From the NCBI GenBank assembly GCA_002189035.1, contig NEEC01000015.1, forward strand, positions 1,550,001-1,614,000: a stretch of DNA of 64,000 nt. The letters are read 5' to 3'. Of the stretch, positions 7,297-43,064 are shown piece after piece. This stretch comes from Utricularia gibba (Eukaryota; Streptophyta; Magnoliopsida; Lamiales; Lentibulariaceae). The translations under genes were made by a program, and so were the position numbers. Positions within the stretch are counted from its first letter, which is position 1; every line of letters begins with the position of its first letter. The notes beneath the pieces were generated by a model. The model worked only from the letters and a program-made list of their open reading frames with translations. It searched no databases and had not been told where the DNA came from.

Positions 7297-8882
7297 CTAG
7301 GCAGGTAGCGGTTCCTCCTGGTCCATGGTCTCTTGTGAGGCTTCCTCCAGGGACTTGCCCTTGGGTTCCGGCACCAGGAAAGTGAACAGGAAGCCGAGTG
7401 CGTTGATTCCGGCGAGGATCATGAGTGTTTTCCGGACTCCGATCCCCGGGGGTACCCCTTGTCGTCCAGCGCCTTGGTCGGGCTCTGCGCCGCATAGAGG
7501 AACCCGTAAGCGCCGACAATGGCCCCCGCTTTCCCGGCGGCGGCGGATATCCCGTGGCAAGTGGATCTCAATCGGGCGGGAAAGATCTCCGCCGGTACCA
7601 CGAAGGTGGTCGCGTTGGGCCCGAAATTCGCGAAGAAGAATGTGAAGCCGTACATCACCACGAATCCGATCCTGTTCTCTGGCATCTTCCAGTGGTCGTA
7701 CGGGATGGAAATCGCGAACATGAAAACCGTCATGAAGAAGAAGCCCATCAATTGGATGGTGAATCTCCCGATTACGTCGATTAGCGCCACTGTGAACCAG
7801 TACCCGGGGACGGTGCCGCAGAGGGCAATTAGGGTTTGGGCTTTCGCGACTCTGTAGACTTCCTCGATCGCGCTCATCGTCGCCGCCGGCGGGATCCACC
7901 CGATGGAGGACAAGACGTCTTTCTGGAAGAGATTTTGACTGTAGAAGGCGATGTCGAGCAAGAACCACGTGGAGCAAGTCCCCAGAAGATGCAAACCATG
8001 GCGTTTCACGAACTGCCTCGAAAACAATCCAAAATTGTTGGATTCCTGGTTTACGATTCTCTCCAGTTTATTCGGTTCCGCATCCAGTTTCACATTCAGT
8101 ACCCGCGCCATGTCCTCGGCGGCCTGTTTCGCGTTCTTGGCGACCAACGCCGTGTACCGTGCAGTTTCCGGCATCTTCATCCGCCAATAGTATGTCAACG
8201 CCGCGGGGAGCGCGCCGAACATCAAAATTATCCGCCATACGTAATCCGCCTCCGGCACCGTTGACGCCTGAGCGCCCTGATTGTACGGCGGAGCTTTGTA
8301 GCTGTTCTTGAAACTAGCCGATACGATCAAAGAGATTATCCCAGCGAACAAAATCCCAAACCCCTGCATCGCGAAAACCGCAGAGATAAACGCTCCCCGG
8401 GTCCTCTTATTGGCGTATTCCGACATAATCGTGGCGGAGAGAGGGTAATCGCCGCCGATCCCGAAACCCAACCAGAAGCGGAAGAAGCAGAGCGTCGCTA
8501 AGACACCTCTGGCGTGGTGACCAAAGGAGAGCCCCGAAGCTATAGAGCAGACGACCATAAGTAAGAGAGTTATCCCGTAAACTCTTTTCCGGCCAAGCTT
8601 GTCACCAAGCCAGCCAAAGAAGAGCTGCCCACAAAGAGTTCCGACGAGTGCAACCCCAGTGACGGAGGAGGAGACCCCCGGCGGCAGGGTACCAGGCTTG
8701 GGCTGCATCGGATCCGTGTAATATATACGGCCGAGGAGACGCGTGACGATAGAGATGCTGAATAGATCATATGCGTCAGTGAAGAATCCCATTCCAGCGA
8801 CCACGATCGCCGTGAAATGATAAAGCTGCGTTTTGGCGGTATCGAGCGCATCCAGCACTTGCAGCCTCTCGCGGCCGGCCAT
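7297..8882 (-). CDS. High-affinity phosphate transporter PHT1 family, copy 1 (frameshifted near C-terminus)
   Basis: An intronless H+/phosphate symporter of the major facilitator superfamily in the plasma membrane. The start at 8882 gives the family N-terminus ([20 protein letters not shown], then [10 protein letters not shown]). The PHT1 signature [13 protein letters not shown] is at residues 143-155, and the transmembrane-loop motif [11 protein letters not shown] is near 93-103. The frame is interrupted at about residue 475, in the C/G run at 7444-7452. Upstream reads DDKGYPRG; the neighbouring frame then supplies the normal end ([31 protein letters not shown]) to a stop at 7297. One base is missing; with it the length is about 528 residues, normal for PHT1. 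A P1BS phosphate-starvation site lies 540 bases upstream. The other copy is at 14435-16008. It is either a pseudogene or carries a sequencing error; I favour the error. Confidence 0.88.
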
Positions 8883-9894
8883 GGCGGTTGTCAGCCGTAG
8901 GTTCAGGTTCTGTTAGCAGACGCATAGACTATATCCAGGAAGCAAGAAGAAAGTCATCAGTAGCAGTTAATGCGCATTAAGTAGAGATTAAAGAAAACAG
9001 AAGTGGAAGTGATCAGCAGCAGGCCGCATGGTGGCATCGGAGACCCAGCTCCTGGTAAACCCATCTGGTCATCTTCTCCGATGGTCAACTCCCAGATTTT
9101 TAGGATGCATTCAACGCATTTGTTGAGTTCCGGTCAATAGTTGTATTAAATGCCTTCATACTTTTTCACAATTAAACAGTTAGTTATTTCATGGGATTCA
9201 TCTGGTGATCTTCTGAATTGTAATGTTCCTATGACTTTAATTCACCAATGAAGAGAGGAGAACAACACATAACTATCATGATTCAAAACAAAAAAAGCAG
9301 GCAACAAAATTCAAACCCATGGATATCTTATCCGACCCGATCCATGAGGGTCGGATTTTTTGTGGATTTGGAAAGAGTCAGCGTTTGAAAATTTCAAACC
9401 CATGTAAAACGGAGCAGGTATGGATATTCTTGTTCAATCTTACGACCATATTTATAATACTCCTAAATTTTTAAATAACGCACTATATAATTGATATTAG
9501 TATTTAACATCAAATAATTTAGTCAAATTTAAATTCATGTTATTCAGTTTGATTCAACTCATTTAAATTATAAAATAAAATAAAGAACATAAATAATTAT
9601 GATTTGAACTATAGATAAATTTTTAGGAGAACAACAGATTTTGTAGTCTTCTCTATTAAACTTCATATTTAAAAGCTTGGCTGAAATTTCATGGAGATCA
9701 TGATTTCTTAATCATTCATGGATAAATGTCGCCGCCGCCTCGGCAAGTCAAGCGTTGTGGGCGGATGAAGAGATGCCAGTCTTTCAGGAACGAAAGATGG
9801 TGTTTGACTCATGTAAGTGTGTGATATGCTGCTTGTAGTAGAACCAGGCAAACAAGAATCTGAATCAGCTGCTCTGCAATCTCCGTTGGAAGAA
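8883..9894. other. Divergent promoter region between PHT1 copy 1 and the LRR kinase
   Basis: AT-rich intergenic DNA between divergent genes, containing one P1BS match (9422-9429). An in-frame upstream extension of the kinase frame exists from about 9826, but the ATG at 9895 is directly followed by a signal peptide, so I took that start. Nothing else is supported. Confidence 0.4.
9422..9429. promoter_or_regulatory. P1BS site (GNATATNC), PHR1-type binding site
   Basis: GGATATTC matches GNATATNC, the site bound by PHR1-class MYB factors under phosphate starvation. It lies 540 bases upstream of PHT1 copy 1. A one-in-several-kb chance match is possible, but the pairing with a second site before copy 2 supports it. 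Confidence 0.45.
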
Positions 9895-12800
9895 ATGGAA
9901 GCGAGATTCTCGCTGTCAAACGCGTGCTTTTGTTTGCCTCTGATGTCTCTCGTTTTTCTTGCTTATTCGACCACGGATTTGAGCACTGATGCAACGGCTC
10001 TGTTGGCCTTCAGATCAGGGTTACTTGGGAACTCTTCTTCTTCACTCAATTGGTCTTCTGGGAATGGTACAACGAACTCTTCATCTTTTGTTTGTGGTTG
10101 GACGCGGGTTACTTGTGGTACCCGCCATCGGAGAGTTGTTGGTTTGGATCTCTCGGGTATGGGATTGACGGGGGCCTAACCCCGGAGATGGGAAATCTGA
10201 CATTTCTTGTCTTTCTGAACATGTCGATGAACCATTTGAATGGCAATTTGCCACAAGAATGGTCTCGATTACGGAGATTACAATTCCTGGACATGGGTTT
10301 CAATCATCTGAGTGGAGAATTTCCTTCATGGATCGGACTTTTGAGCAACCTCCGGACGCTTATTCTTCGAAACAACACCTTCTCTGGCGTCCTGCCTTCC
10401 TCCATAGGCAATGCATCGAAGCTTGAGAGACTGGTGTTGCAGTTTAACAAGATGGAGGGCCAGATACCATCATCTGTTTTCAACTTATCCAACTTGGCGC
10501 ACTTGAGCCTTGCGTTCAACAATTTTGCCGGCATCCTCCCTCCCCGCCTCTGTTCCGGGATCCCCAGAATCCAGCGCTTCATACTGACGGCAAATAATTT
10601 GGAAGGAGAGATACCTTCCAACATGTCGGCATGTTCACTGCTACAAACGATCAGCTTGTCTGCGAATATGCTGAGCGGTTCCATTCCTTCAGACATGAGC
10701 TCTCCTTTCTCACAATTACAGCAGATATCATTAGCCAGAAACAGACTTGTTGGTGAGATCCCCAGACCGTTGGCGGAATGGACGGCGCTTCGGATATTTG
10801 AAGCATATACAAACAATATAACAGGAACCATTCCACCAGGACTCTCAAATCTGACAAACTTGCAAACGCTGGATCTCTCAAACAACAACATCCGGGGTAT
10901 GCATAGGAGATTGCAATCAGAGAGTAAAAGTTCTCTGTCATTCACCCACTTCCATTATTGTCTCCAGGCACACTTCCACATGAACTGGGGGAACTCGGTG
11001 AACTGCAGGAGTTCGATGTAAGTAACAACTACTTAACGGGGGAAATTCCAAGAGGTATGTTAAATAGCTCGACCCTTCAGATTCTAGACATTGATAGAAA
11101 TGCAATTACTGGAGAAGTTCCTAGCAATCTCTGTTTGGGGTTCCTAATCTGGTGGGACTTTACTTGGGTCTGAATGATTTGTATGGGGAACTTCTGGCCT
11201 CCATTTCAAACTGCTCTAACCTTGAAATATTGGATGTTGTTGTCAATCACTTCAGTGGAGTTATTCCGAGTGCTATCGGAGAGATGAGATTCTTGACAAT
11301 AGTGAACTTGCAAGCTAATAACTTTACCAGTGACTCCTCAACGTTGAATGTTGTGACTGCACTGGGAAATAATACACAACTACGTGAGCTGAGGTTATCA
11401 TTGAACCCTTTTTTCACAACCCTTCCAGATACAGTGGGTAATTTGTCTTCTTCGCTTGAGTTGTTTGAATGCTTTGATTGCGGTCTCCATGGAATCATAC
11501 CCAGAGAAATTGGAAATCTCTCTGGGTTGCTCCTGTTGGATTTATCACACAATAACTTGATAGGATCTCTTCCCACCACCTTGGGGATGCTTCAAAATCT
11601 TCAAGGATTGATGCTGTATCAAAACAACATAAGTGGATCTTTACCAGTTGAGCTATGCAGCTTACGTAGTACGAGCGAAATTGATCTTCATGAAAACCTG
11701 GTTGCTGGTAGTATTCCTTCATGCATTGGAAACCTCGCATCCTTGAGAAAGTTAGATGCTTCAAGCAATCAGTTGGAATCCATAATTCCATCGAGTTTGT
11801 GGGCACTCAGTAACATTCTGGAGTTGAACTTATCTAACAATCTCTTGCGTGGTTCCCTCAGTTCCCTGATCGTAAACTTAAGGGCTGCATATCTTGTTGA
11901 TCTATCAATGAATCATTTTTTAGGTGTCATCCCAACTTCGATCGGAGATATGCAAAGTTTGACGAACTTTTCATTAGCACACAACGAATTTGAAGGCTTC
12001 ATTCCAGAGTCAATTGGTAGTATATTCAGTCTGGAACGAGTGAATTTATCCCACAACCATCTTTCTGGAACAATCCCCCGAGCTCTGCAGAATATTTCAA
12101 GTCTGGTATCATTTGATGTTTCATTCAACAGTTTACATGGTGCTATTCCCACAGAAGGTCCTTTCCAGAACTTCTCTTACGAGTTTTTTCAATCTAATGA
12201 AGGCCTTTGTGGTGAACATCGCTTTCGTGTTCCTCCATGCCATGTTCCAAAACATAGGCTGCATAAGAAAAAAGTGGTTCTCATGATTGTGCTTTCCATA
12301 TTATCTGTTTTGGGGGTTGTTTTTGCTTGTTTCTTGGTATATAAATTGTGCTCAAGATTCAAAAGAAGTGAGGTTTTACAAGATGACAACAACCAGCCAT
12401 TGGCTGGTACAGTTCCTGAGAGAATATCATACTATGACATTGTAAAAGCAACGCAGAATTTCAGCAGCAACCATCTGATAGGCAGTGGAGCATTTGGCAG
12501 GGTATATAAAGGCCATTTTCCCGACCAAAGCACCTTTGCAATTAAAGTGTTCAATCTAGAAATGCAACTGGCCTCAAGAAGCTTCTGTCAGCAAGTGGTG
12601 GAGCAACGAAGATCCGGGAAGTCTCAACCCGCGAAGATGAATGGCGCGCGACCTCTGTTCCTCCCATGAGAAGCAACCCTCAATTAGATTGGGAAAAAGG
12701 CCTTATCATACTTGGGCCTCAACATTCCAAACTACTGGCCCAAGAAGAAGCATCTGAAGCCCAGTCCATGAAAGAAGTCCTAGTAAATTCTGGCTGCTAC

Positions 12801-13807
12801 ACAGTAGATGAACAAGAGGACTAATCTACAGACTAAAGGCAACGGTCATATTTTAGGCCTGATATGATCCAACGGGCAACTCTCCTCATCTATATAAATC
12901 CCTGTTTGCTTTATGAAAAATAGAAATAAAGTTCTTTTCGATCCAAAAACAATAGTCAATATCCACAAACTTCAACATTATCTCAACGTTAAACCAAGTC
13001 TCCAACAAAATCAAGCAAGCAGCCAAAAATACTTTTAGCTTCAAAGTAGAATGTCAAGGAACTTATGCAAGGTTATCAGTGCTTGCTCTAACAAGGACTT
13101 CAAAGCACTTGTCCTGGAGTACATGCCAAACGGGAGCCTTGATAAATGGTTATACGGCGAGAATCAGTTCTTGACAATGAAGCAAAGATTCTCTCTGATG
13201 ATCGACGTTGCATCTGCGCTGGAGTATCTCCATCATGGTTCTGCTACCCCCATTGCACACTGTGATCTAAAACCAAGTAACATACTTTTGGATGAGAACA
13301 TGATCGCCCGTTTGAGCGACTTCGGAATTGCGAAGCTGCTACAGAAGGCGGATGGCAGCTTCGTACAGACTTCCACTTTTGGGACGTTGGGCTACATCGC
13401 ACCAGGTAAACATCTCCAATCTTCCTACATCAGTGAACTCTCTGTCTGACAGCAACTCTTACCATACAGAATATGGGTCCGGGGGCTTCGTTTCAACACG
13501 ATGCGATGTGTTCAGCTTCGGGATAGTGCTCATGGAGGTGTTTACTGCTAAAAAACCCAACGACCTCGAATTCACCGGAGATTCAACGTTGAGGGATTTG
13601 GTAAGACAATGCGTCTCCGATGGAAAGACAGACACGGCGGCGGATTCCAGATTGTTGAATCATGAAGATGAGAATCTGAATGTGAAACTAGACTGCTTAT
13701 CGTCGGTGTTGGAGCTGGCCCTCAAGTGCTCCATGGAGAACCCGTACGCGAGAATGAGGATGAACGATGTAATTGCTGCGTTGAAGAGGATTTCGCATGA
13801 GCTATGA
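9895..13807 (+). pseudogene. LRR receptor-like kinase, subfamily XII (EFR/At3g47570 type), broken
   Basis: The domain order is that of LRR-XII receptor kinases at the plasma membrane. It has a signal peptide (MEARFSLSNACFCLPLMSLV), an LRR N-terminal cap (DATALLAF), about twenty LRRs, a membrane span near 12285-12345, then a kinase with GSGAFGRVYKG, HCDLKPSNILLD (non-RD) and DFGIAK. A normal intron at 13406-13469 splits GYIAP|EYGS, and another at 10897-10967 splits an LRR. Damage: a one-base loss in G(5) at 10170-10174, another in G(4) at 11137-11140, a 457-bp insertion at 12586-13042 after ASRSF, and a loss of roughly a dozen residues near 13049 between VEC and RNLCKVISACS. The last two disrupt the kinase around helix C, so no functional receptor is expected even if the homopolymer losses are errors. 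It lies between the two PHT1 copies on the opposite strand. Confidence 0.85.
12586..13042 (+). mobile_element. 457-bp insertion in the kinase gene, LTR-like remnant
   Basis: The kinase reading frame ASRSF stops at 12585, and its continuation (KVEC) resumes at 13043. AGCTTC occurs on both sides (12580-12585 and 13037-13042), as a target-site duplication would. The insert starts TGTCAG and contains a TATA-like TATATAAAT near 12890 followed about 30 bases later by AATAAA, as in the U3/R part of a plant LTR. It does not end in CA and I see no primer-binding site, so a truncated solo LTR or TRIM-like remnant is the best guess. Confidence 0.4.
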
Positions 13808-14434
13808 CGTGGGGCTACGCAATAAAAGCTGTATTTTCATATTTCGTTTTAAAACAAAAGATGTATAGATATAATTTTTATAAAGTAATCTCATTCATAT
13901 TTACTCAAATAAATTAAAATTTTACATTAAAGAAAAGTCATGTTGGCTATAAATTTTCAAAAAGAATATATCAAAAAATGCCTCTTATAAAATTTTTTTC
14001 AAAATAAAAAATATTTATAGATTGTAAATTTATTAAAATAAAAATTTACATTTTCATTAATATCATCTTCCCCATCCTGGTTGTCTGATGGTTGCCGACG
14101 CTGCCCTCGCAATTCCCAGTTGCTGTCGTCGCCAATTCAGACAAGAGGCCAGTTGCCGGGGTTAGTTGTTTTTTTTGGGCATTTTTGCTTTGGTTGTTGA
14201 ATGCGGTTGTTGATTGATATTGTGGGAGCAAGTGCATATATAATAATCAAGTACATAATAAATATAAATTATAATAAAAAAATTAAGTTTAATTGATTAT
14301 TTATAATTTATAATTTATAATTTCTTATATACTTGATTATTTTATTTGTATTTTAAAATGTGAGATTATGTATTATACTATACTAATCAGATATGGATGC
14401 AAATAGAGAGTAGATATGTATAAGGGTTGAGTAA
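13808..14434. other. AT-rich spacer with an inverted repeat
   Basis: The 3' flanks of the kinase pseudogene and of PHT1 copy 2 converge here. It is AT-rich and contains the inverted-repeat element at 14242-14341. A 63-codon minus-strand frame at 14046-14237 has no recognisable content. Confidence 0.4.
14242..14341. repeat. AT-rich inverted repeat, possible small MITE
   Basis: A left arm at about 14242-14274 (starting AATAATCAAGTACATAATAA) is nearly the reverse complement of a right arm at about 14309-14341 (ending ATACTTGATTATT). The arms are about 32 bases with few mismatches, around a central stretch of about 35 bases. The size and AT content suit a miniature inverted-repeat element or a simple hairpin-forming palindrome. 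No clear target duplication was identified. Confidence 0.45.
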
Positions 14435-16008
14435 CTAGGAAGAGAGCGGGTCCTCCTGGTTCATGGTCTCTTGAGAAGCTTCTTCCAGGGACTTGCCCTT
14501 GGGTTCCGGCAACAAGAAAGTGAATAAGAACCCAAGTGCGCTGACAACGGCGAGAGCTTTGAGCGCTTTTCTAGCTCCCATCCGCGGCGAGTACCCATTA
14601 TCCTCCGGGCTCTTCGCCGCATAGAGGAACCCGTAAGCGCCGACAATGGCCCCGCTTTCCCGGCGGCGGCGGATATCCCGTGGCAAGTGGATCTCAATCG
14701 GGCGGGGAAGATCTCCGCGGGTACCACGAAGGTCGTCGTGTTCGGTCCGAAATTTGAGAAGAAGAATGTGAAGGCGTACAACACCACGAACCCGATCCTG
14801 TTCTCTGGCATCTTCCAGTGGTGGTACGGGATCGAAATCGCCAACAGGAAAACCGTCATGAAGAAGAAACCCGTCAATTGGATTGCGGATCTCCCGATTA
14901 CGTCGATTAGCGCCACCGTGAACCAGTACCCGGGGACGGTGCTGCAGAGGGCAATTAGGGTTTGAACTTTTGCGATGATGTAGACTTCTTCGATCGCGTT
15001 CATCATCTTTGGGTCTGGGATCCATCCGGTCGAGGACAAGATGTCTTTTTGGAAGAGATTGTTACTGTAAAAGATGATGTCGATCAGGAACCACGTGGAG
15101 CAAGTTCCCAGTAGATGTAAACAATGGCGTCTCAGGAACTCCCTCGAAAACAATCCAAAATTGTTGGATTCCTGGTTTACGATTCTCTCCAGCTTATTCG
15201 GTTCCGCATCCAGTTCCATATTCAATACCCTCGCCATATCCTCGGCGGCCTGTTTCGCGTTCTTGGCGACCAACGCCGTGTACCGTGCGGTTTCCGGCAT
15301 CTTCATCCGCCTGTGGTATGTATACAACGCCGGAACCGCGCCGAACATCAAAATTATCCGCCATACGTAATCCGCCTCCGGCACTGTTGACGCCTGCGCG
15401 TCCTGACTGTACGCCGGAGCTTTGTACCAGTTCTTGAAACTAACCGATACGATCAAAGAGATTATCCCGGCGAACAAAATCCCAAACCCCTGCATCGCGA
15501 AAACCGCAGAGATAAACGCTCCCCGGGTCCTCTTATTGGCGTATTCCGACATAATCGTGGCGGAGAGAGGGTAATCGCCGCCGATCCCGAAACCCAACCA
15601 GAAGCGGAAGAAGCAGAGCGTCGCCAAGACACCTCTGGCGCGGTGCCCAAAGGAGAGCCCCGAAGCTATGGAGCAGACGACCATAAGCAAGAGAGTTATC
15701 CCGTAAACTTTTTTCCGGCCAAGCTTGTCCCCAAGCCAGCCAAAGAAGAGCTGCCCACAAAGAGTTCCGGCAAGCGCCACAGCGTTGACGGAGTAGTATA
15801 CGCGAGGCGGAAGGGTTCCTGGCTCCCCCTGCATGGGATCCGTGTAATATATACGGCCGAGAAGACGCGTAACAATGGAGATGCTGAAGAGATCGTAGGC
15901 GTCGGTGAAGAAGCCCATTCCGGTGATTACGATCATCGTGACATGATAAAGTTGCTCCTTGGCGGTATCAAGCGCATCCAGCACTGGCAGTCTCTCGCGA
16001 CCGGCCAT
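14435..16008 (-). CDS. High-affinity phosphate transporter PHT1 family, copy 2 (frameshifted)
   Basis: The tandem paralogue of the transporter at 7297-8882 is intronless, with the same start context and signature [13 protein letters not shown]. It is a plasma-membrane proton/phosphate symporter of the major facilitator superfamily. The frame breaks in a run of four C (plus strand) at 14650-14653, where copy 1 has five. The expected [15 protein letters not shown] becomes [11 protein letters not shown], while the next frame supplies the correct end ([20 protein letters not shown]) to a stop at 14435. Restored length is about 524 residues. A palindromic P1BS element lies 201 bases upstream. A 155-nt tract (15470-15624) is identical to copy 1 (8344-8498), pointing to recent duplication or gene conversion. 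Like copy 1, it is either a homopolymer error or a recent pseudogene. Confidence 0.88.
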
Positions 16009-16208
16009 GGCGGTTGTTAGCTGCCGGAAGAAGCAAGTCTTAAGCTGCTGTAGCGTGCATTACGCGGAGATTAGAGATTAAAGAAACAAGAGTTGTTGAG
16101 GAAAGCTTCCTGCTCCCTGGGGAGGTGATGAGCATCTAACACCATGTATATATATATATACATGAATTAATACTCATTGCATGCCAAAAACATGATATTA
16201 TATATTTC

Positions 16209-16216
16209 GAATATTC
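16209..16216. promoter_or_regulatory. P1BS site (palindromic GAATATTC)
   Basis: GAATATTC is a perfect palindromic match to GNATATNC, 201 bases upstream of the start of PHT1 copy 2. That is a typical distance for PHR1 sites in phosphate-starvation-induced transporter promoters. Confidence 0.55.
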
Positions 16217-17177
16217 AATTGTCAACATTTTACGTTTTTTCGTTTTCTAATATATTATGACTAGATCCACCGCCTTACACTTCCAATCTTACATTCAAGG
16301 CATTTGTTTACTATTTTCAGAGGTCAAGGTCAATATTTGTATTACTGTTTCCTCCCTTCAACAATTAAATATGTATTCACTTTATCAAGAATATGCTTTT
16401 AATATCATGCCCAACAAAAGTAGATACTCCCAATTTCACATTAGTTAAGGATTAAAAAAGAGGAATAGATTAATTAAAATAATCACATAAACCTTTTTGT
16501 AAGCATATGAGACGGTTTTTTGTTAGAGAAACTCCATGATAAAAATAGAATGTAAAAATATAAAAATTTAATGTTTAAAATATATAATATCACATTAAAT
16601 AATTGTAGTTTTGGGGGCTAGATGTCATTTATGAAAAATATTGGTGAGAAATTATAATAAAAATAAGAAAACGTAATCAGATCATCACCATACGCACATT
16701 CAACGGTCCACTCCACAACACATCCTACAACGTTATTGCACTAGTTTTATCTTAATTTTATACTTTTATTTAATAATTTTAAATTATTAACCGATATTTG
16801 ACTATTAATAAAAAAAAGATCACCGACTAGGACTTGGTACTCAAAAATAATAATAATAAAGAATTGATAAATAATCCACTCTATTTTTATATTATAATGA
16901 AAAAGGAGACTGAAATCATATATGGACCCGAATTCAGTAAAATAGGTCTTACATTAAAATGATCCTTTGAGAGAAATATGCCTAATGACAGTCCGTTCTC
17001 TAAGTAGGTTCACCCATAACCGCCTATACGAGAAAAGAACCTGTGTTTTAGAACCTATGGTGGATGATTAAATATATTATTTTATGTTTTCAGTTTTCAA
17101 AATACATCTTTTAGATTAAATTTAGAAAAATATATTATTTATGTGTTTCTTTTGAATTTTAAATAATATGTAGAAAA

Positions 17178-17289
17178 TGTATTTTATAAATCGAAAATAC
17201 AAAATGATGTATTTTATCAATTCAATATACAATATGTATTTTGTAAATCGAAAATATAAAATGATATATTTCACGAATTTTATGTATAA
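17178..17289. repeat. 56-bp degenerate tandem duplication
   Basis: ATGTATTTTATAAATCGAAA at 17178 recurs as ATGTATTTTGTAAATCGAAA at 17234. Similarity continues through most of the 56-base unit. AT-rich, non-coding. Confidence 0.5.
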
Positions 17290-17863
17290 ATATTTGGTGT
17301 AATCTTGAAAACTTCTTTATCATTGCAATATTTATATATCCAAAACGTCATACAATATGGCTTGCATTCCGAAGGAGTGAATCAAGAATCCTATTTCCAC
17401 AGCTGCGATGTCAACATGGACAGACGCGAGTTGAGGTTTCTCTCATGGAGGAGTATGACCCGAGTCTTGTTGCCATTCTCATGTCGCCGGGGTGCAGCCT
17501 GAGGATGAGCCCACCAGATATTCAATACGGATGCCTCGACTCACCATCTCAAACTTTTCCTAAGAAACAAAATCCATTTGACTGCTCACAAGAAGAACAG
17601 GTTCTTGTACAAATTTGAAACCTAAATTCTAAATCATTATACAAAAGCCACTTTTTTTGTTTTGTCTGTTGAGATTAAGTATTGGTTGTTCTAATATTGT
17701 CTAATTCAATTTCATTTTTTCCTATCGTTTTGACAGTTTTGTTGCAAAATGAAAAATTGTAATATGGATTTTGGAAATCATGCTTCCATGTGTTGCATTT
17801 TGCTATGTCGTACTGCCGTGTTTTATGACGTGAAAAAAGCTGTTAGGTGAGCGTAACGTGGAG

Positions 17864-19377
17864 ATGGCGGTAGGTGGCTCCTTGTTATATACTCTCAACG
17901 GAGGGGGAGTTCGCTCAAGTTTCATCAACAGGATGATGATGATGACGATGACGATGAACACTGCCATCTTGTTGTTGTTGTTGTTGTTGGTTGCTTCTGC
18001 TTCGGCGCAGATGGCCAAGTGCCCATTCACGTATGTTTTTCACTTCGGGGATGGTGTCACGGACGTCGGCAACTCCATTCGCATTCCGCCGTGGGGTCCT
18101 AATCTTCCCGCAGCCAAGCTTCCCTACGGGATCACCTATCCCGGTTATCCTACCGGTCGTTGGAGCGACGGCCTTATCGACTTCGACTACGCCGGTAAGT
18201 TTTCTCCCGGCAATGCATTCAGGTGGAATGACTGAGACTCCATATTTCGAACTTGCAGCTGCTGACACCGGCTACCCAGTTGTCACACCCTACTTGTCGG
18301 GGAACGCTTCAAAGAACACCGCCATCATCTTCTCCGTTGCAAGGAGTCCCGTTCTTGACCACGATTTTTTCGAGAAGAGATGCATCAGCGTGCCCCCTCA
18401 TGCTGTCCCTGTTAGGGAACAAGCACGCTGGTTCAAACAGTATCTCAGAGAAGTTGCTCCGACCCCACGAGGTTTAGAATCACTCTTCGTTCTCACTTCT
18501 TAACCTACGACTAGTCACACAGTTCCTTCTCCCTGCCAGAGCGAAGTGAAAGGCTCAGTGATGGCATCGTCTTCTTCGGGGATATCGAAGCCAACGACAT
18601 CGCGTATGCATTGATCTCTGGTAAATCCCTAGAAGAAGCCCGAACCTACGTGCCCCACATCATCGAAGCCGAGCTCAGCTAGGGTTAGCAGTGCAGCTAT
18701 ACACTCCCATCACCATTAGAATCCAAACAAAGTGTGAAAAGTTTTGAGCTTTTGTGGTGCAGGAGCTGATCCTTATGGGCGCCAAGACGTTCGTGATTCC
18801 GGGAAGCTCATACATCGGATGCTACCCACATATTCTGACCGCCTTGCAGAGCAGCAACCCAGATGATTACGACAGATATGGGTGCTTGAAGAAGGTGAAC
18901 GAATTCATTGATTGGAAGAATGATCAACTCAATGCATCCATTGTGGCTCTTCACGCTGAGTTCCCAGACACATTGTTGCTGTATAGCCCATTTGCATCAG
19001 GCTTCCAAGGGTATCTGCAGCAGTACGTCGGTAAGTAGATCCTGCAGTTCAGTACTTGGAGTGAATTCGCAAATGAGTTTACCCGATTTCTTTTGTGTCG
19101 TGTTGGTTTAGCTCCAAACGGCCCTGTGAGACTCAGAGCGTGCTGTGGGAGTGGAGGGCAGTACAACTATGATGCGAAGAGGGTGTGTGGGCACCGGAGC
19201 GCCAGGGTTTGCCGGAACCCGAAGCAGCATCTGTTCTGGGACGGGCAGCACTTCACTCAGGAGGCGTATAATCTCATTGAGAAGACTATGATTACTCCTT
19301 CTTTCGACATTTTCAATTGCACCATTCTGAATCGCGCTGCCGCCGGAATCATACGCCCCGGTGTCGCCGTCGTCTGA
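17864..19377 (+). CDS. GDSL esterase/lipase-like protein, probably inactive
   Basis: Five exons are inferred (17864-18194, 18259-18471, 18540-18683, 18763-19030, 19112-19377). The N-terminus is a signal peptide built from ATG and TTG repeats (MMMMTMTMNTAILLLLLLLV), so the product would be secreted. Family landmarks include TGRWSDGLIDF, WFKQYLREV, ELILMGAKTFVIPG, ACCGSGG and the block V motif WDGQHFTQEAY with its catalytic Asp/His. Block I reads FGDGVTDVGN: the GDSL nucleophile serine is glycine (GGT). Block III reads EAND instead of GxND. Exon 3 is two bases short of the phase needed to join exon 4; read straight, it hits TAG at 18680-18682 just before the only sensible donor. With two more bases the total would be 407 residues. 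It is most likely a decaying or inactive paralogue. Any of the clustered ATGs near 17932-17956 could also serve as start. Confidence 0.75.
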
Positions 19378-19843
19378 AGCGGCGGCGGAGGGAAGAAGCT
19401 GTGCGGTGTGTGAGTTGTGCGTCTTGAATAATAATTGTCACTGGAGTACATCGTACTCCTCGTCGCATCGCTCAAGTGCAATAATTGAAGTTGGTTTCTG
19501 GTGTTTCTTTCTTTTTAAATATGTTTTATTTCTAAATTTAAATAATACCCATATTCTTCACATTTTCAAATAAAACTAGACATATTATTCACATGTCAAA
19601 ATTACATTTATCAAATAAACGCAATTTTTAATATATGGGTATTTAAAAGCATTAAAAATATTATGTTTTAAAATAAATGCCATTTTTCGTCCTTGAATTT
19701 ATTTATTTAAATAAATAAGTGTTTCCTCATCCACCCCGGTGGTGAACCAGCACGAATCACTTGTCCTGGGGGAGTGCGCAGCGCGCGGTTCCAAGATTTG
19801 AAGGTGTTCGTTGGAGGACACGCAACAGCAGCTAGAATCGCCG
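19378..19843. other. Intergenic: GDSL 3' flank and SBE3 promoter
   Basis: AT-rich DNA at 19500-19720 is followed by a GC-richer leader before the branching-enzyme start. No specific motif is supported. Confidence 0.4.
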
Positions 19844-22800
19844 ATGAGTAGCCTTTCCTTCTTTCAGCATCATTCTTTTCGATTGAATCCTCCAGCGACG
19901 ATTAGGACTCCCTGCTACAGCTCTGTGTTTCTCTTGCCCGCCACCGCTCACAATTACAAATGCTTCGCCCAACAGCAATCTGGCCGCGACCCAAATCCTC
20001 AGAACCAGCGCCAAAAGTCTCAGAAACTCGATGCTAATACTAAGGACGGTATAGACCCGGTTGGTTTTCTTCCGAAGTACGGTATCACGGATAAAGCCTT
20101 CGCCTTTTTTCTCCGGGAAAGGTATTTCGACGTGTTTAGATGATGACTCATTCGTATCTTTACTTCCGCTTCTGAGGCTGGAACTACGTTACAGATATAA
20201 GGCATTGAAGGATTTGAGGGAGGCACTTTTCAATCGTGGCCTACTTGCCCCGGAGTTGGCATGTGGGTTAGTACTTTGTAGTTTGCGACGCTCATCTCAA
20301 CTGCGATTGTTTACATTTTTGTCTGCATAATGAGGTTCTGCAGCATATTTAGTGGCAAACTCTGTTATATGTATCTTATGCTTTTTTTTTCAGATTCGAA
20401 ACGATGGGAATGCATCGTAATGTACAACATCGCGTTGATTATCTTGAATGGGCTCCAGGTATGGATTACTATCTGCCATCTTGGACCCATCATCCATAAA
20501 TACTTCAGAGTGAAGACATTTGTAAACGGATTCAAGGGGCTGAACTCTTTATGGAGTGAGAATGATTGCATATAGGGGAAAGGAATGGTGTTTTCAAACT
20601 TCAAGATGCTATTACATTGAGTCTTACGACCAGTTGCTAATCATGAATCTTGTGGATATCGTCTCTATTTGTGTATGATAGTTATGCTTGCTCCTTGCCT
20701 TTTCTTGTAGTCAAGATAGAACAAATCCCTATTATTACATTATTCTTGAATGTGGTAACTATCTCAGCATGAAAATCCACTTGCGCTCTTTTGATTTCCA
20801 GTCTGTTTCTGCAATGGCAGGTGCTCGCTATTGCTCACTTGTGGGAGATTTTAACGGATGGTCGCCAACTGCGAATTCTGCAAGAGAAGGGCATCTTGGT
20901 CACGATGACTATGGCTATTGGTTCATAATTATTGAAGACAAATTGAGGGATGGTGAAGAACCAGATGAAGTTTACTTTCAGCAGTACAATTATATTGATG
21001 ACTATGATAAGGGTGATAGTGGAATTACAGTTGAAGAAGCTTTTAGGAAAGCAAATGAGGAGTACTGGGAGCCTGGTGAAGATCGGTTTATAAAGTCTAG
21101 ATATGAGCTTGCATCTAAATTGTACGAGCAAATTTTCGGCCCTAATGGTCCTCAAACAGATGAGGAGCTTGAAGAAATACCAGAACCAGAGGTCAGATAC
21201 AAGGCCTGGAAAGAGCAACAACAGAATAATCCTCCAAGCACACCAAGTTATGATGTGATTGTTAATGATGGCGATGATGATGGTGGTGATGATTTCTATT
21301 TTAATGTTGCAACTGATCCTGCTTGGAGGGAGAAGATACGTACCAAAAAGCCACCTCTTGCGTACTGGTTGGAGACTAGAAAGGGAAGGAAGGCGTGGCT
21401 TAAGAAATACTCTCCTGGGATCCCCCATGGAAGCAAATACAGGGTCTACTTCAATACCCCGGATGGACCTTTGGAAAGAGTACCTGCCTGGGCTACATAT
21501 GTGATTCCTGGTCTGTGAGAGTAAACTTGTTTTTTCGTTTGTGTTTCTGTAGAATAATTTCAAGAAGAGCCTCTAATTTATTTAGGTTGATGCCTTTTGA
21601 GTGTAGTTTGATATAAATAGGGTTGTAAAGATGTGAGCTGTTTTTGCAGGATGCTTGTGTTCGTGTATTCTAATTTTGCAGCTGGTCTGGGCTTTGCGTT
21701 TTCTGGGCATAGCATCCTACTTTTCAGTTCAATTGATAAATTTAGTTTACCTTTTCCATTTCAATGATACTGCAGCATATATGAAATAGGTAGTGACTTC
21801 CTGTTTGATACTCCCCCATTATGTTTGGTGTCAATAGTCATTTTTTGCTATCGTTCAATATGCTCTTCATTTGAACTCGTTTTATATACCAGGAATGCCT
21901 GGTACTCAGTCTTTTGCAGTTCACTGGGAGCCCCCTCCTGAGAGTGCTTACAGGTGGAGACATAACAGCCCTTCAAAACCCAAGTCTTTGCGCATATATG
22001 AATGCCATGTTGGGATAAGTGGAAAGTCCCCTAGAATTGCTACCTTTAACGAGTTTACTGATTCGGTAACTCTTTTCACTCCTTTTAATTAATTTGTTTG
22101 CTCATTATAATGATATTTTCTATTTTTTCTGCTGTGCTGACTACAATCTAATATGTGCTGTTGCGATCTCATTGCCATATAGGTTCTACTTCATGTAAAG
22201 GAAGCTGGATACAATGCTATCCAGTTAATTGGAGTAGTGGAGCACAAGGATTACTTTACCATTGGTTATAGAGTACGTGTTATCATAGATAGAGTATCGT
22301 TGAATGCTTTCTGGTTATCATAATAACATGCACACAAACAAGACAATGATATATTTTGTAGTTAATTTGTGGTTATGTGCAAGGTGGTGTTTGCTTATGC
22401 TGCTAGTGGTTATCCTCGTCGTATTGGTGTTTTTTCAATTAAACTTTGAAAGTGAAATTTGGACAAGAATATTAGCTATCTTATCAAATATTGGCTTATA
22501 ATCCTGATTTGGCGTGCTACTGTGCCTTTTCCTTTGATACCAGAACATTCAATGCCCGGCTTTTGTATTGTGGTGTAGGTAACAAATTTCTTTGCTGTCA
22601 GCAGCCGCTTTGGTACCCCTGATGATTTCAAGCGATTAGTGGATGTTGCACATGGTTTGTTAAAACTTTTTATTCTGCTGCTTCTTAAAGCCACTCAAGC
22701 ACTTGAAAGTTGCATCAATAAAATGCCATCACTTTGGGGGCATCCGACAAAATAAGAGTATGGAGAGGATTAACAGTTCACTTCACAGGCGTGAAATATA

Positions 22801-27182: not shown

Positions 27183-29261
27183 TCACTTTCTCCCGTTGCA
27201 GACGTCGCATGGAGTGTAACCAAGTCCATCGCAATACGGGCACTTTGCCCTTTCATCTATCCACTCCAGAAACTGCAGCTCAACAAATTATAAACATATC
27301 AAAATCAGCTTTTAACCCATCTATCAATTTTTTCTTTGTTAGATGTACCTGAGGTTCGATGTTTGGCTCCCCTGTGCCGTCACATTCTGCAGGAAAAATC
27401 CATTGAAACATGGAAAGACCCATCAACCACAAAATTGTGTTGGCTCCCATGAGGAGAATAATAGGTGATATAACAGAGAGGGAGTGTCCTTTAACGCACC
27501 CATGCACAATACGCGGCCTTCTCCACGACATGAGACGCATGTTGTTGCTACACTTGTAGTTGTTTTCTTGTCTACAGTTTTCTTGCTTCCTTTCGTAAGC
27601 CTGGAGGGTTCCTCCCATCTGTTTTCTCCAAGAAGGAAAACTCTCCCTCGAGAAACTTCATGTTCTCCTACACCTCCATCAGTTGTTGCAATAGTTTGCT
27701 CTACTTGAGAAAGGTCTTCAGTGGCGGCCACTGGTGCAGCATTTGCAATCTGGGGGAATCGGAGATTGAGGGGATTCATTCCGTTCTGATCAATTAAATA
27801 AGTGCACCATACCTTGGTAGAACTAGCTCCCACACCATCTCGATTTATCTTAACCGCAGAACTAGAAGCATTGAATAATCTGTCTAAAAGTTCATTAGTC
27901 ATAATGCCAGTTTCTGGTTCTCCTAGTGTGGCCTGAAAATGCAACACAGTGCACAGGTTAATTCTCACATTCTTCGTGGAAAATGAGACATGACTTCTTT
28001 CGGATAATCTTTCAGTATGGTTATTGAAATGGAACATACTTGCCAGGTTTTCACTGCACGCTCAGTTCCACTAGAAAAGCTGCAATACTCCATATCCTCT
28101 TCGCCAGAGTAAAATCCAAGTCTCAACAAAGCCTCCTATCAAACCCAATGAGGAAAGCAGGGGGGATTTGAACTCAAAAAATAGACATCAGACAGCAAGT
28201 TAATCAAAATGATGTCAATATTCATTTACATCACAACTGACGGGACCGTTGTACCAATGAAGGAAATAAGGTTCAACTCTATACCCTTATCAAATAATCC
28301 ACATCAGGTTCAGAACAATAGCATAAATATGTTTGACGGATTAAACAGAAAGCGTCACTATAGTGGAAGGCAATGCATACCTGCATAGCTCGAACATCAT
28401 CTCCTTCTGCTCCTTTCTGCAACGCATGTCTCCTTTTCGTGGTTTCGGTTTTGTTAGAAACGCTGATTAGTTCCTCAATGACAACTTCTTTGCTCTCTGA
28501 AGTGGATTCAACCACTAGCGGCAGAGCACTCGAACCAGACTCGGTGATTCTGCTCACATTTTTTCCCAAGTCTCCTTCCTGCACAGCCTGAAAAATGCAG
28601 ATTAGTAGAGTAGTTGATCAGCTAAGGAAGGTTTTCTAACGGCCATATCGCCATGTATAATTAAACCGTAGAATATCTTGCGAACCCTATTTCTCCCTCC
28701 TACCAAAAAATACAAGCACAAACATACAAAAACATAGCCAAACAAGAAAAGAAACAACTGATGATCGAAATTCAAACATTTGCCTACATCTCAATCCAAA
28801 AATATACAACTTTAGACCACTAACAACGAATTCATGATCCATACGATGATTCCAAAGCAGGAAATTAAAAGCTTCGCAGAGATGTGTCATTCACCGATAA
28901 ACGAAACCAACCTGCGTACCTGCAACAATTTGGCGACGTGGGCAACAATTTCAGGGACTGGAGCCCCATTGATGGAATTAAGTCTCTCAAGCTCTTCTAT
29001 TCTTTCCTTTAGGCTGCGTATTTCCTGCAGCAAGGCATGGCGCTCGTCTTTCCACCGCTGCTCCTCCCGCAGCCAACGGTGCTCCTCCCTAATCCACCTC
29101 TGCTCCTCCCTGAGCCAGCGTGCTTCCTCGCCAATCGGAGAATGGTCTGGAACAGAGAATCCGAAACATACTTTAGATTTCCGGCGCGCTGAAGTGAGTA
29201 AAGGCGACGATTTGTGAGAAAAGGCGAAGTTGGAGGGTGAAGCATGTAGGGAGGAGAGCAT
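27183..29261 (-). CDS. PTAC5: Plastid transcriptionally active chromosome protein 5 (pTAC5)
   Basis: Seven exons (28920-29261, 28381-28587, 28040-28135, 27813-27932, 27500-27749, 27349-27386, 27183-27272) encode 380 residues; the Arabidopsis protein is of similar size. After a plastid transit peptide there is a charged coiled coil with a repeated seven-residue pattern (RWLREEQRWIREEHRWLREE). Next comes a peptidoglycan-binding-like helical module (GDDVRAMQEALLRLGFYSGE). The C-terminus is a DnaJ-type zinc ribbon with four CxxC motifs (CVSC, CMEC, CPYC, CDVC). pTAC5 is a component of the plastid transcriptionally active chromosome and has been described as a zinc-finger protein with disulfide-isomerase activity that supports plastid-encoded polymerase, notably under stress. 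The intron 5 boundary uses a run of C before CAG. No damage seen. Confidence 0.93.
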
Positions 29262-30198
29262 TTCGCGGAGGAACTTGAAATCTGAATATTATTTTTTTTA
29301 TTATTAAGAATTTAAATGGTTATATATATTTATGGATATTAATTAAAAGTTTTAGCTCCATTTCGCTCCTCAACAATCTCATCCGCCATCCAACTAACCT
29401 TTTTCAAAGGTCTGTAAAATTGCATTTCAATATAATTTAAATTAAAATATATTTGATCTGAAGTGCATTGAAATTAAGCATAATTTATTAATATTTCAGT
29501 TAATTTGATATGAATTGCATTTGAAAATAATTTAGCCTAATTTCCATAATATTAATGGGGGTGAACTAAGTCTTTTAAAAATGGGATTAAGTCATCTTTT
29601 GATATAATTATGAATTTGGATTGAATATTTTTATATAAATTTAATTAAATTCAATAATTCTAATTATATTTGAAAATATTTTAATAAATAAAACAAATTA
29701 AATCTAATCTCTATAATTTTTTTTAAAAAAAACTTATGAAGGGGGCTTGAGTTAATTTTGAATTCTATGGATTGAATATGAATTAAACCTAATAAAACCA
29801 TTTCATTAATTCTAGAGAAGCAGTATGATATGAATCAATGTAGCTTTGCAAGCACAGCATGGTCATTAAAAGTGAATCATCACATGACAGGAAAGGAGTC
29901 CAGATCATGGCACATGGTGTACACTGCACAAGTATGAGACAACGTAGAACCCCATCATATCATTAATCATATCCCAAGAGTCGAAGCAAAAGCATAAGTG
30001 AGAAACACTTGTTAGTGACGAAGCATCATGAATCACTAACTATACAACATTATCATTTCAACTATGCTTTAGGAGCAGGACTACAAATTACAATCATGCA
30101 TCAGATACAGAAAAAGGAACAGCACATGATATCTCTGTTTGTGTGTGTATGTGTATGGGGGGGGGGGGGGGGCAAGCACTTGAGGGAAAATGCCCGTT
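29262..30198. other. pTAC5 promoter and BAGP1 3' flank; G(16) run
   Basis: AT-rich promoter DNA from 29262 to about 29800. The 3' untranslated region of the next minus-strand gene follows. It contains a (GT)-rich stretch and a run of 16 G at 30157-30172. Confidence 0.4.
30157..30172 (+). repeat. Homopolymer G(16)
   Basis: Sixteen consecutive G on the plus strand, C on the sense strand of the BAGP1-like 3' untranslated region. The length is probably imprecise in the assembly. Confidence 0.7.
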
Positions 30199-37218
<7,020 letters not shown>

Positions 37219-38232
37219 CTCTACTCCCAACTAGAGGAGAAAATGGAACAGGATCGGGAGCCCCGCGGCCAAATCCGCGATTAAAGTGTGCAGCTTTCGG
37301 CGCATAACATGGAGAACAGGACGTTATGAAATGAAATTGGGATGGGAATTGGGATCCTCTTTGCAAATTCACTTACCAGAGGGGGAAATAATAACGACAC
37401 AAAAACACCATTAATAATAATAATGAATACAAAAAAAGGATAATAATGTCCTGCGGTCAAAAAACAACCCATTTATAGTAATTACCTTTAAAAAATGAAA
37501 AAAAAAAGGAAATGGGTTTGAACTTGGGGTTTTGCCGTTGACGTAGACGGAGGTTCCTTGAAGCGGAGGATACCAACTGTTCTGTACATCTTCCACACTC
37601 TTCTCCTCCAACAATAAAAGAACTTATGTTAGATATTTTGCCATTGAACAAAATATCTTGTTTCATAATATATTGAAAAAATAGTGTTTCAATCAGAATT
37701 GAATCGTGATAAAATTAGTTTAAATTTAAATTGTTTTAAAATAAAAACATAAATTATGTTTGTAACATTATTTTTCTGTTTTTTTTTTTGAAAATTTTCA
37801 AAATAGTTTCATTCTGGAATTTTGGTTGTTAAATCCATTTGGAAATCTGAAATTTTTGGAAATTTCGCACATTGTTCGTGAGAGCAACTGCCAAGAGCCT
37901 AAAACCAGGACTCAGGTAGTTCATTGACACTAGAGAAGTGGCTGAAAGTGTAGTCTGGAAGTGCAGGCGGCGGCGAGAGGCCATGACGGCGGCGACGGTG
38001 GCCAAAGATGTGTGAACGCCCATCGGAGTAAAATAATCACTACTGACACAAGGGACGTGAAACCCCAAATTGAATTACCATCATCACTCCATATGATCTT
38101 ACCAACATCAAAAAAAGGGAGAGCTGTCTAAGCACATGGCATGACCCGCGGATCAATTTGGCCACCGCAACGGACCCGTGAATAAAATATTGACGAACAA
38201 AAGGAAACATCTTTTGACCCACCTGCGGCTCC
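37219..38232. other. BAGP1 promoter and RPN2 3' flank
   Basis: The promoter of the BAGP1-like gene and, from about 38040 up, the 3' untranslated region of RPN2. Minus-strand frames at 37411-37666 and 37829-38068 have no recognisable content. Confidence 0.4.
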
Positions 38233-41200
38233 TCATGGAGAATATTCGAATGGTTGAGGGGGTGCAGGTTCTTCATCAACAGGCATGGCTGAGGAAGCAG
38301 CCGGCTGCCGAGTGGCTGAGGCACCGGCGTTGGATGCTGTTGATGAAGGTGCATCGGTGAGGGATAACTCTTCCGGTTCGTTTGGATGCAGATCCTTCAG
38401 CAGCACGAAACCTGATGGTGCCATCTTGATTGGAACATATCTGCTTTCCTCTAGAAATCTGATGTATTTTTCCTGGGCAGGAACAACTCGAGCAGGATTT
38501 GTCAGTATTTCATATGATGCCTCAGGCTCCACCTTCTTTTCTGGAACGCTATCAACCTGACAACAAAGGGGAAAGAAAAAAGGATAGCGGCAGGTTCAGA
38601 GCAGTGTGTCATCAAGTTATGGGTTTGCAAGAAATCTTTAGGGGAAAAGTGAAGAGTGAAACCAACCTTCATGGAGTCTCCATCCTTGTCGCCTGCCTTG
38701 AGCTTTGCAGCGCTCATTTCTCCCTTCTCAGATGCTTTTTCAGCCTCCTTCTTGCTAGACCTTGCCTTGGCTCTTGCTGATGTAGATAGAATTGCGGTAG
38801 AAAGTTTGACTGCCGATGTGGTGGTGGCTACAGTAGTAGGCTTTGGATACTCGAACAATGATGGCTTAGCATTTGATAAGAATTCAAACTTCGGAACTTT
38901 CAGGTCACCATTCAACCCAATAAACGCGGTGGGGGAGAAGGCCAAGCTAATGAAGTATATGAGAGGGTACCAGTACCAAAACTGGCTGAATACAGCAAGG
39001 CCCACAACTGCAGTGATCTTATCGTGCTTCGTCTTGGAAAACAGCTTAAAGGTTACATTCCTTCCACCAGCATCAAGAATTCCAGAAGCTAAAATTGCAC
39101 CCATCTTGCTCATAGTGTCTTCATGTTTATCAAGAATGATTTTTTCCAACTGACGCCTGAAAAATTAAGAAGGTTAAATCTGGACGGAAGCACAGGTTGA
39201 AAAGCCGAGTGTCACCTACCTGAATGAGCCTACGCGTGAATCACTGGATTCACTGATCTGGACCATCACCATGGCCATTGCAATTAGAGCACCTTGACGA
39301 ACAAAATCTACAACATCTGATGTCAAAGGCTCTAGCAATGATATTGCCTCGCTCAAACCTGTTCCAGCACAAGAAATTCCAACGGCCAGTGCAGCACCAT
39401 ACCGAACATGTGGATTGTAGGACTCTGATAACAGTGAAACAATTCTAGGTGTCTGCACGGGAAGAAAAAAATCTAAAGTTAAAGAAAGCCAAGTTTCCAT
39501 TGATCAATTTCAGATATTGGAAAGAAATGAAACCTGTTCAGGATCAGAATACAACACGAATCCAAGGGCAAGCACTGCAGTTCGTCTCACGTCATCACTC
39601 ACATCTGAGACAGCAAAGTGCAATAACTGGCGTATAGCCTTGTTGTTTGATGTTCCTCTGTATGCAACAGCCAAAGCATACATTCCGCCGTAACGCAAAA
39701 TTGGGTCCTGGTCACGAGTCATTTGCTCAATGAGCGTGTCAGCTTCCTCCTCTCTACCATACACTGTCAGCGCAATACCTAAGGCCAAACCCCTAAATGC
39801 AGCAAGAAAAGTTAAAAAATGCAAAATTTTTGAGACATCCATGCCCTCAGCAAGTGTCATTTCTACCTGATTATCTTCTCATGCTGAGTTTCATGAGCAT
39901 AAGCAAGCATTTCACCAGCCTTCTCACTAGCTGTCCCAACCATTAGCAAGCCCATACTAATACCTGCTGCTTCCCCAGCAACAGCATTATCAGTGTAGAG
40001 TACATTTTTTATTTCATAAAAAATATCCTCATCTGCAGTACCCAAGGCAGCTAAACCAAGACCTAAGCAGGCACCATGCTGAATTACCTGCGTCATTTAA
40101 AAAACACATAGAGCCACATATTTCTACAAGGCACGAGCAGTTCATATAAATGGAATCTTGTAAGGAAAGCACCAACCTCAACATCAGTGCTCCTCAGGCT
40201 CTCTCGCAAGAAGTTCTTAATGCCTTCCCCGTGGTTTGCATGAATTAAACCAAGGGCATACAAAGCTCCACCTTCAGAGTATGGACTGCTGGCACCACCA
40301 GAAGCACCTTGCGGCAAATAAGGTGCCATAAGAGATCTGCCCTGCTGCAGATGACCTCTGTGGATGACACCAAGGCCTGCTGTTGCACTAAATTTAGCCC
40401 AGTTTGTAGCCCTACTAAGCCAATCCTATCAACCAAATTCAATTTTCAGCCAAAAATGATATACGAAGAATAGAAACTATTGCTTACGATGATAACGTGT
40501 TGTGACAAAAAGGCTCACCAGATTTTCCCTCAGAAATGTATCAACTGTTGTCCCAGCATGCATAATAGCATTAGCATATATTGTCGCACTATGGCAGACA
40601 CTATTTCTCATCTCAATTGACTGCTTTATTGTCTTAAGGATGAGAAGATCTGATCTGGAAGATAAAAGAAAAACATAAATCAATCATATAGGTCACCCAT
40701 ACACACACACAAAACAACATAGAGAGCAGCATGACAGGTGGAAAATAAAAATAATATAGCCTTACTTATTGTGGCTATACAAAAACTGCAGTGTCAGCTG
40801 TATTGAAGTCTCTCCTGATAATATTCCTCTTATTTTAGTTAATCTCTCTGAATATCGCGAATCAGGGCTGGTGCTTGTTGCTATACTGTCAGCTAAATTT
40901 CCATCAGGCATGTCAACATCCTCTGATGCCACGGAATCTCCAATTCTCCCAGAATCTAGATTTTCGGCCTCCAATGATGGTGGAGCCTCTGATGGCACTG
41001 GCTTAGGTTCAGCAAGATAATTTCTCACCTTCAAGAGGAAGGCCTGATGTTCATTCTCAACAAGGTCAAATGCAATCTGAAATGCCAGAAGTGCATCATC
41101 CACATTTTCTGATCGCAAAAGATTCTCCAATATATGAGCCACGCCTTCGGGATCATCTAAGAACATTAAACGCTGGCAGATACTCAAGAAATCTGGAGAA

Positions 41201-43064
41201 GGCAATTGCCGATATACTTTGACGAGAAGTCGGAGCACCTAAAGGCATTTAAAAGGGCATAATTAACTAAAAATTGTGATCAAGATTATCCAAAATTTAC
41301 TAGCATGAGTTTGCATTAGAATATGTTAAAATTACCTCACATCGATATTCCCTTCTGTTGACAAATGAATGAGATAACTCAATGCAATAATTAATCATAG
41401 AATGAACATTATCGCTCCTTATGACAGCTTCCTCAAGCTTATCCAAGCGTCGACATTCAATAGCCATTCCTATTGCTTGCTGGAATTTTCCATCAACAAT
41501 ACACCTGTAGATGAGACAATGGCACCTGAGCAAACAAGCAAAAAGGCTAAACAGTCAATGAAGAATTCATTTCGCACTTATCCAGCATTCTCTCCACAAT
41601 GGCTTCCAGCCTCGGGTCAACCACCACTGATTTATCAGTTGACTCTGCTGCCTTGGTCTTCAGGCTCGCATATTCATCGATTGCCTTGGCTTCAAGAAAC
41701 GAAAATAGATTATCTATCAGCCACTGGCATAAAAATATGAAGAAATCAAAATTACAACATGGGGTGGAAATCTCACCGAGAAGAGTATGAATGTAGTCTG
41801 TATCTTCAGAGACATCAAAAAGGGGACCAGCACCCAGGGCATATGACAATGAGTCATTCAGTTCACCCAAGTAATAGAATACCTTAGAAACAAGCAAGGC
41901 AGCTAGCTGTCGCTCATCAAATTGTTCATCCTCATACAAGCTCTCTCTGCCCTCAAAAAATGAGAAACCTTATTTCTCTTTCAGTGGAAAGTTGATAGTA
42001 AATTCAAGCAAAAAAATATCACATGGAAAGCGCTAATGGAACCATTTATTGACAAGAAAGGAAGCCTATATCAAATGGTAACAATCTGGTAAAAGATTAT
42101 TCAACCGAAAATTAGTGGTGACAAGTAATGCAGAATACAAAAAGAAATGAAGAATTCCAAATGAATGCTCAGAACGCGTATGCATAACGAAAAATTCACT
42201 GTCAAAGGAAAACAATGTTTCCAAAGACAATTCAGGAAAATATTAGTAGCAGCAAAGTTATCCTGTTGAAAGAAAGAGCACATGAAGTGTATAATACAAA
42301 TGAAAGCGTCAAAGTACAAGTTTACAGCAGGTATACATAAATAAGCAACTGAAAGGGCAGTGCAGAGATTAGAAGTATGGCAAGGGAAGCCATGAAAAAT
42401 TAACTATATCACTCCACACATTGTACTGAGCGACTTATGGACAGGATGTTACGAGCAAATTCAAACTACTTTAATCCTGAACTAACACTTAACCCATCCA
42501 GAATTTTGGATACTACGCCTGCATCTATAAGTAAGATTTCCAAGAAATTCATTTTCAGTTATCAATGGTTGAAACTTAAAGATCAACATATCCACGATCC
42601 ACCTAAGGATCCCAATGGCAGCGCACCAGAGAAAACTACAACGTCACGATGACAATTCAATTTTCACATCTTTGAAGGCACCTATACATCAGAGCTTTCA
42701 AAATTGCGAGCACTAGAGAAGTTTAAAACCTTTTGAATCACTTTCAGAGCATACAAAAGCAGACGATACTTATCTAAGAAACTAAATACCCATATAATTG
42801 CAAATTCAAAACTCAAATATAAGACAGAATCTTCAATCCAGAACTAAAACTACCACAAAACCTGAATCTACAAACCGAGCAGAAACGAAAAAATAAGGAG
42901 AGAGTGAGATTACATGATGGGAACAGAGGTGGAGATCTCCGGCCAGAAGTAGTCAACGAAAGCATTCAGGTTGGAGAGGGCGTATAACTTCAGAGCGGGA
43001 TGGCTCTCATTCAGCATCGCAAGCAGTCCCCCGCCGAACTCACCAACGTCGCCGCGGAAGCCAT
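38233..43064 (-). CDS. RPN2: 26S proteasome regulatory subunit RPN2 (PSMD1); one-base frameshift after the start
   Basis: Twelve exons (42914-43064, 41777-41946, 41578-41689, 41336-41504, 40766-41238, 40519-40654, 40177-40425, 39867-40087, 39534-39792, 39220-39452, 38667-39156, 38233-38556) encode about 995 residues; the Arabidopsis RPN2 proteins have about 1004. RPN2 is a solenoid scaffold of the 19S base that holds RPN10/RPN13 and contacts RPN1. PC (proteasome/cyclosome) repeats are plain ([58 protein letters not shown]). A lysine/glutamate-rich linker and the conserved C-terminal [14 protein letters not shown] segment follow. The natural start ATG at 43064 gives [12 protein letters not shown], but the frame to [14 protein letters not shown] is off by one base in the run of five C at 43028-43032. 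A sixth base restores it exactly. Since this subunit is essential and all else is intact, a sequence error is most likely. Confidence 0.93.

What the first reader, a model, noticed from the sequence alone, without database searches (positions are those of the whole stretch)
7444..43032. Five one-base losses, all in runs of G or C, across four genes
Frame breaks at 7444-7452 and 14650-14653 (two PHT1 genes), 10170-10174 and 11137-11140 (LRR kinase) and 43028-43032 (RPN2) are each fixed by adding one base to a G/C run of four or five. No such break was found in CRY2, SBE3, pTAC5, BAGP1, UBP, tandem kinase, THIM or KIN-12F. The shared signature points to residual homopolymer error in the assembly and would make gene callers truncate good genes.
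Basis: partly seen in the sequence, partly recalled or inferred. Interest (0 to 1): 0.75.

Follow-up and report, generated by a model that had tools for sequence, protein, structure and literature searches.

The report
Assembly errors in G/C runs
Five single-base gaps that break genes in this plant DNA are almost certainly assembly mistakes of a well-known type that recur all over this genome assembly, so the transporter and proteasome genes are probably intact in the living plant, while the receptor-kinase gene is broken anyway by a transposon remnant.

Summary
In detail: all five frame breaks sit at the stated coordinates, each is a one-base loss, and each can be placed in a G or C run of four or five. 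The window lies in a 100.09 Mb, 516-contig genome resembling the Utricularia gibba PacBio HGAP/Quiver assembly. In GRAS, PHT1, HSP70, KCS, UGT and LRR genes elsewhere in it, I found about 30 more frame breaks. Every one is a one-base loss; no consensus gain or two-base shift appeared. Twenty of 30 scorable breaks fit a G/C run of at least four, against 28 of 294 simulated random deletions (P = 5e-12); A/T runs are not enriched. Five of ten PHT1 genes are broken this way. RPN2 is single-copy and essential. A redundant contig differs from its twin by one substitution and a dozen indels, all losses. Two corrections: the LRR kinase is a genuine pseudogene (a solo LTR with target-site duplication, plus a missing kinase stretch), so its two breaks cannot be assigned with the same confidence; and the pattern is assembly-wide, not local. 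This is a known artefact class, of practical value only.

The parts
7444..7452 (-). Frame break (1-base loss) near the 3' end of PHT1-type phosphate transporter A; run CCCC-GGGGG on the + strand
   Evidence: -1 against four intact paralogues; the out-of-frame tail continues as the conserved C-terminus
7300..8882 (-). PHT1-type phosphate transporter gene A, otherwise an open single-exon gene
14650..14653 (-). Frame break (1-base loss) in PHT1 gene B; CCCC, while tandem copy A has CCCCC at the matching place
   Evidence: -1 against five intact paralogues
14438..16008 (-). PHT1-type phosphate transporter gene B (tandem copy, about 88% identical to A)
10170..10174 (+). Frame break 1 (1-base loss, GGGGG) in the LRR receptor kinase gene
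11137..11140 (+). Frame break 2 (1-base loss at or beside GGGG) in the LRR receptor kinase gene
12586..13037 (.). Solo LTR (452 bp) inserted in the kinase domain; 5-bp target-site duplication GCTTC at 12581-12585 and 13038-13042
   Evidence: 97-98% identity to about 24 other genomic copies with the same termini
9896..13808 (+). LRR receptor kinase pseudogene (two frame breaks, solo LTR, about 10 kinase-profile positions missing at the empty site)
43028..43032 (-). Frame break (1-base loss, CCCCC on the + strand) in exon 1 of RPN2, 12 codons after the ATG
   Evidence: only copy in the genome

Best explanation
The breaks are consensus errors of the assembly. Where the plant's DNA has a run of identical G or C bases, the long-read consensus caller reports one base too few, and the reading frame of any gene crossing that run appears broken. 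Shown: the five breaks, their one-base-loss nature, the G/C-run enrichment, and the recurrence of the same signature across the assembly. Inferred: that the cause is PacBio-type consensus error rather than true loss, and that this assembly is the Utricularia gibba HGAP/Quiver assembly. The PHT1 and RPN2 genes are most likely intact in the plant. The LRR kinase gene is a real pseudogene for other reasons, and its two one-base losses are probably, but not certainly, errors too.
For: Elsewhere in the genome about 30 further frame breaks in GRAS, PHT1, HSP70, KCS, UGT and one LRR gene are all one-base losses. Of 30 scorable breaks, 20 are compatible with extending a G/C run to four or more, against 28 of 294 simulated random deletions in intact genes (P = 5e-12; P = 5e-10 without the window's own); A/T runs are not enriched. 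GRAS paralogues L072, L073 and L076 break in the C run of the same conserved GGPP motif, and L071 in the adjoining G run. Five of ten PHT1 genes carry such a loss. RPN2 has a single copy and reads through without a gap against a plant RPN2. Contig C316 duplicates a stretch of C412 with 1 substitution and about a dozen indels, every one a loss in C316. G/C runs of seven or more nearly vanish (2 in 277 kb, about 8 by extrapolation) while A/T runs show no such cliff. A review describes the U. gibba assembly as PacBio-only HGAP with Quiver polishing, 581 contigs, N50 3.4 Mb (PMC5793159), and another paper describes homopolymer indels as the main long-read error (PMC12007338).
Against: No reads, transcripts or second assembly of this species could be examined. 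The duplicated HSP70 stretch on C241 and C304 carries the same loss on both contigs, as a true loss would, although a systematic error would do the same. The LRR gene is genuinely disrupted. Some breaks fall outside G/C runs, for example L083 and one in L074. RPN2 has a downstream in-frame ATG that could rescue a truly shorter run.
Confidence: 0.93

Rival explanations
1. True mutations: the genes really lost one base each and are decaying pseudogenes after gene duplication.
For: The LRR kinase carries a solo LTR with target-site duplication and a further missing stretch, so decay is real in that gene. PHT1 is a multigene family in which loss of members could be tolerated.
Against: Decay would give gains, two-base shifts and stop substitutions as well as losses; only losses were seen, with otherwise open frames. 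RPN2 is single-copy and essential (essentiality from general knowledge). Half of PHT1 and several HSP70 genes would have to be dead.
Confidence: 0.05
2. The runs are truly shorter, but the genes work through downstream starts or through slippage during transcription or translation on the G/C run.
For: RPN2 has an in-frame ATG just after the break. Slippage on homopolymers is known in principle (general knowledge).
Against: Breaks lie in mid-domain in many unrelated families and at runs as short as two or three, where slippage is not expected. No shared slippery motif or downstream structure was searched for. The redundant-contig comparison shows losses in A/T-rich flanking sequence too.
Confidence: 0.015

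Closest known systems
[quoted passage not shown]
   Same: One-base losses in homopolymers, frame breaks in conserved genes, predominantly deletions, unpolished long-read consensus
   Different: Here the excess is in G/C runs and none is seen for A/T runs in coding sequence; in the nanopore case of PMC12007338, A/T runs were hit more often
Pseudogene decay by frameshift
   Same: Interrupted frames, and for the LRR kinase also a transposon insertion
   Different: Only one-base losses, otherwise intact frames, hits in a single-copy essential gene

Membership tests
Residual homopolymer consensus error | Breaks are one-base indels in homopolymer runs beyond chance | tested here: met
   20/30 against 28/294, P = 5e-12
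Residual homopolymer consensus error | Same signature across unrelated genes of the assembly | tested here: met
   GRAS, PHT1, HSP70, KCS, UGT, LRR, RPN2
Residual homopolymer consensus error | Bias in direction (losses) | tested here: met
   About 35 losses, no consensus gain; redundant contig loss-only
Residual homopolymer consensus error | Accurate reads show the longer run | not testable with these tools
   No reads of this genome are held
Pseudogene (LRR kinase) | Lesion that no run-length error can explain | tested here: met
   452-bp solo LTR with 5-bp TSD and missing kinase-profile positions
Pseudogene (PHT1-A, PHT1-B, RPN2) | Any lesion other than the single-base loss | tested here: not met
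   Frames otherwise open and conserved; RPN2 checked for exon 1 and the long exons only

The most novel reading that the evidence does not exclude
The shorter G/C runs are real in this lineage: a mutational bias towards one-base losses in G/C runs, with the affected genes kept working by some tolerance of frame breaks.
Probability: 0.01. Interest if true: 0.9.

Novelty: already known. Interest (0 to 1): 0.15.

Why it matters
Claims of gene loss, truncation or pseudogenes made from this assembly need checking against short reads or transcripts first. In the families sampled, the rate is about one false break per few kilobases of GC-rich coding sequence (rough estimate), enough to truncate a noticeable share of gene models.

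Tried and rejected
An intron reading of the LRR kinase insertion was rejected: no donor fits the phase, and the insert is a repeated LTR with a target-site duplication. A codon-usage scan of the window for further frame switches found only the PHT1 breaks and is not sensitive enough. An apparent frame change in a GDSL-type gene at 17.9-19.4 kb is an intron. A redundant contig covering the window itself was not seen: PHT1, RPN2 and LRR matched at or near 100% only in the window. I tested whether the published truncated DCL3 of U. gibba could be the same artefact: one of four RNase III loci has no Dicer dimer match, which agrees with the publication, and the authors confirmed it with transcripts and 5' RACE, so this idea was dropped. 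The Utricularia genome paper itself is not held. A plasmid search was uninformative.

Full report
What was checked. The five sites were read directly and translated in three frames. The tandem copies are 88% identical and A has five C where B has four. The two LRR sites were located against a paralogue on contig C1. RPN2 exon 1, read across the break, aligns without a gap to the plant RPN2 chain of PDB 8amz, and the genome search found only this one RPN2.

The genome. The window lies at C412:1550001-1614000 of a 100.09 Mb genome in 516 contigs. Size and contig count resemble the long-read assembly of Utricularia gibba, described in a review as PacBio-only, HGAP with Quiver, 581 contigs, N50 3.4 Mb, 88-fold coverage (PMC5793159). 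The identification is an inference from size, contig number, a 6.8 Mb contig (a 6.8 Mb unitig is mentioned in PMC8333044), and one Dicer-like locus without a dimer domain.

Assembly-wide test. Family searches list matches frame by frame, so a break in a single-exon gene shows as two abutting matches in different frames. In GRAS, KCS, HSP70, UGT and PHT1, I took the abutting pairs and read the junctions. All are one-base losses. Three GRAS paralogues (L072, L073, L076) break in the C run of the same conserved GGPP motif, and a fourth (L071) in the G run beside it. The aligner run over 30 GRAS and 10 PHT1 loci gave consensus losses only; the +1 calls appear only against references that are themselves broken or in poorly conserved N-termini. 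Five of ten PHT1 genes are affected, counting the two in the window. The C1 paralogue of the LRR gene itself shows a one-base loss in a GG run.

Control for chance and for choice of site. Because a reader can always find some run near a break, I scored, for each break, all one-base insertions that restore the alignment nearly optimally, and took the longest G/C or A/T run so extended. The same procedure was applied to 300 random one-base deletions in intact GRAS and PHT1 genes. Of 30 scorable real breaks, 20 allow a G/C run of four or more, against 28 of 294 simulated ones (P = 5e-12); for five or more, 14 against 11 (P = 3e-10). Leaving out the window's own breaks, P = 5e-10. A/T runs are not enriched. 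The window sites at 10170 and 43028 fell below the scoring threshold (a reference broken close by, and a short exon) and rest on the alignments above. The junctions were picked by hand from the match tables, so the count is a sample, not a census.

Second consensus. Contig C316 repeats a stretch of C412 almost exactly. Over 4.1 kb they differ by one substitution and about a dozen indels, every one a loss in C316; two are in runs of four and five C, and others lie in A/T-rich flanks. Allelic variation would not be so one-sided. In 277 kb of sampled sequence, G/C runs fall off steeply after six (34 of length six, one of seven, one of eight), while A/T runs do not.

The LRR kinase. The insert at 12586-13037 is a solo LTR, 97-98% identical to about 24 other copies with the same termini, flanked by the duplicated GCTTC. 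Even at the empty site, the kinase profile jumps by about ten positions. This gene is therefore a real pseudogene, and its two one-base losses could be real decay; the assembly-wide pattern makes error more likely, at perhaps three in four (judgement).

Other genes of the window. Short exons were not tested one by one.

Conclusion. This is a known class of artefact (PMC12007338 and Watson and Warr 2019 cited there). Read-level proof is outstanding.

Noticed in passing
window 12586-13037: Solo LTR of a young LTR element (97-98% identity to about 24 copies, many in pairs about 5.1 kb apart) in the kinase domain of the LRR gene, with TSD GCTTC.
   Followed up: yes
L057 (C316) against L058 (C412:853.8 kb): Redundant small contig nearly identical to a main contig, differing by 1 substitution and about a dozen losses; C241 and C304 (HSP70) have identical match scores and an identical 141-base junction, and C242 and C304 (LRR) share one match with the same score, so these look like further redundant contigs.
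   Followed up: partly
C213:2761967-2762970: Of four Dicer-like loci with RNase III matches, this one has no Dicer dimer match, in agreement with the published N-terminally truncated DCL3 of U. gibba (PMC8333044).
   Followed up: partly
window 7300-8882 and 14438-16008: The tandem PHT1 copies share long near-identical stretches between more diverged ones, which suggests gene conversion.
   Followed up: no
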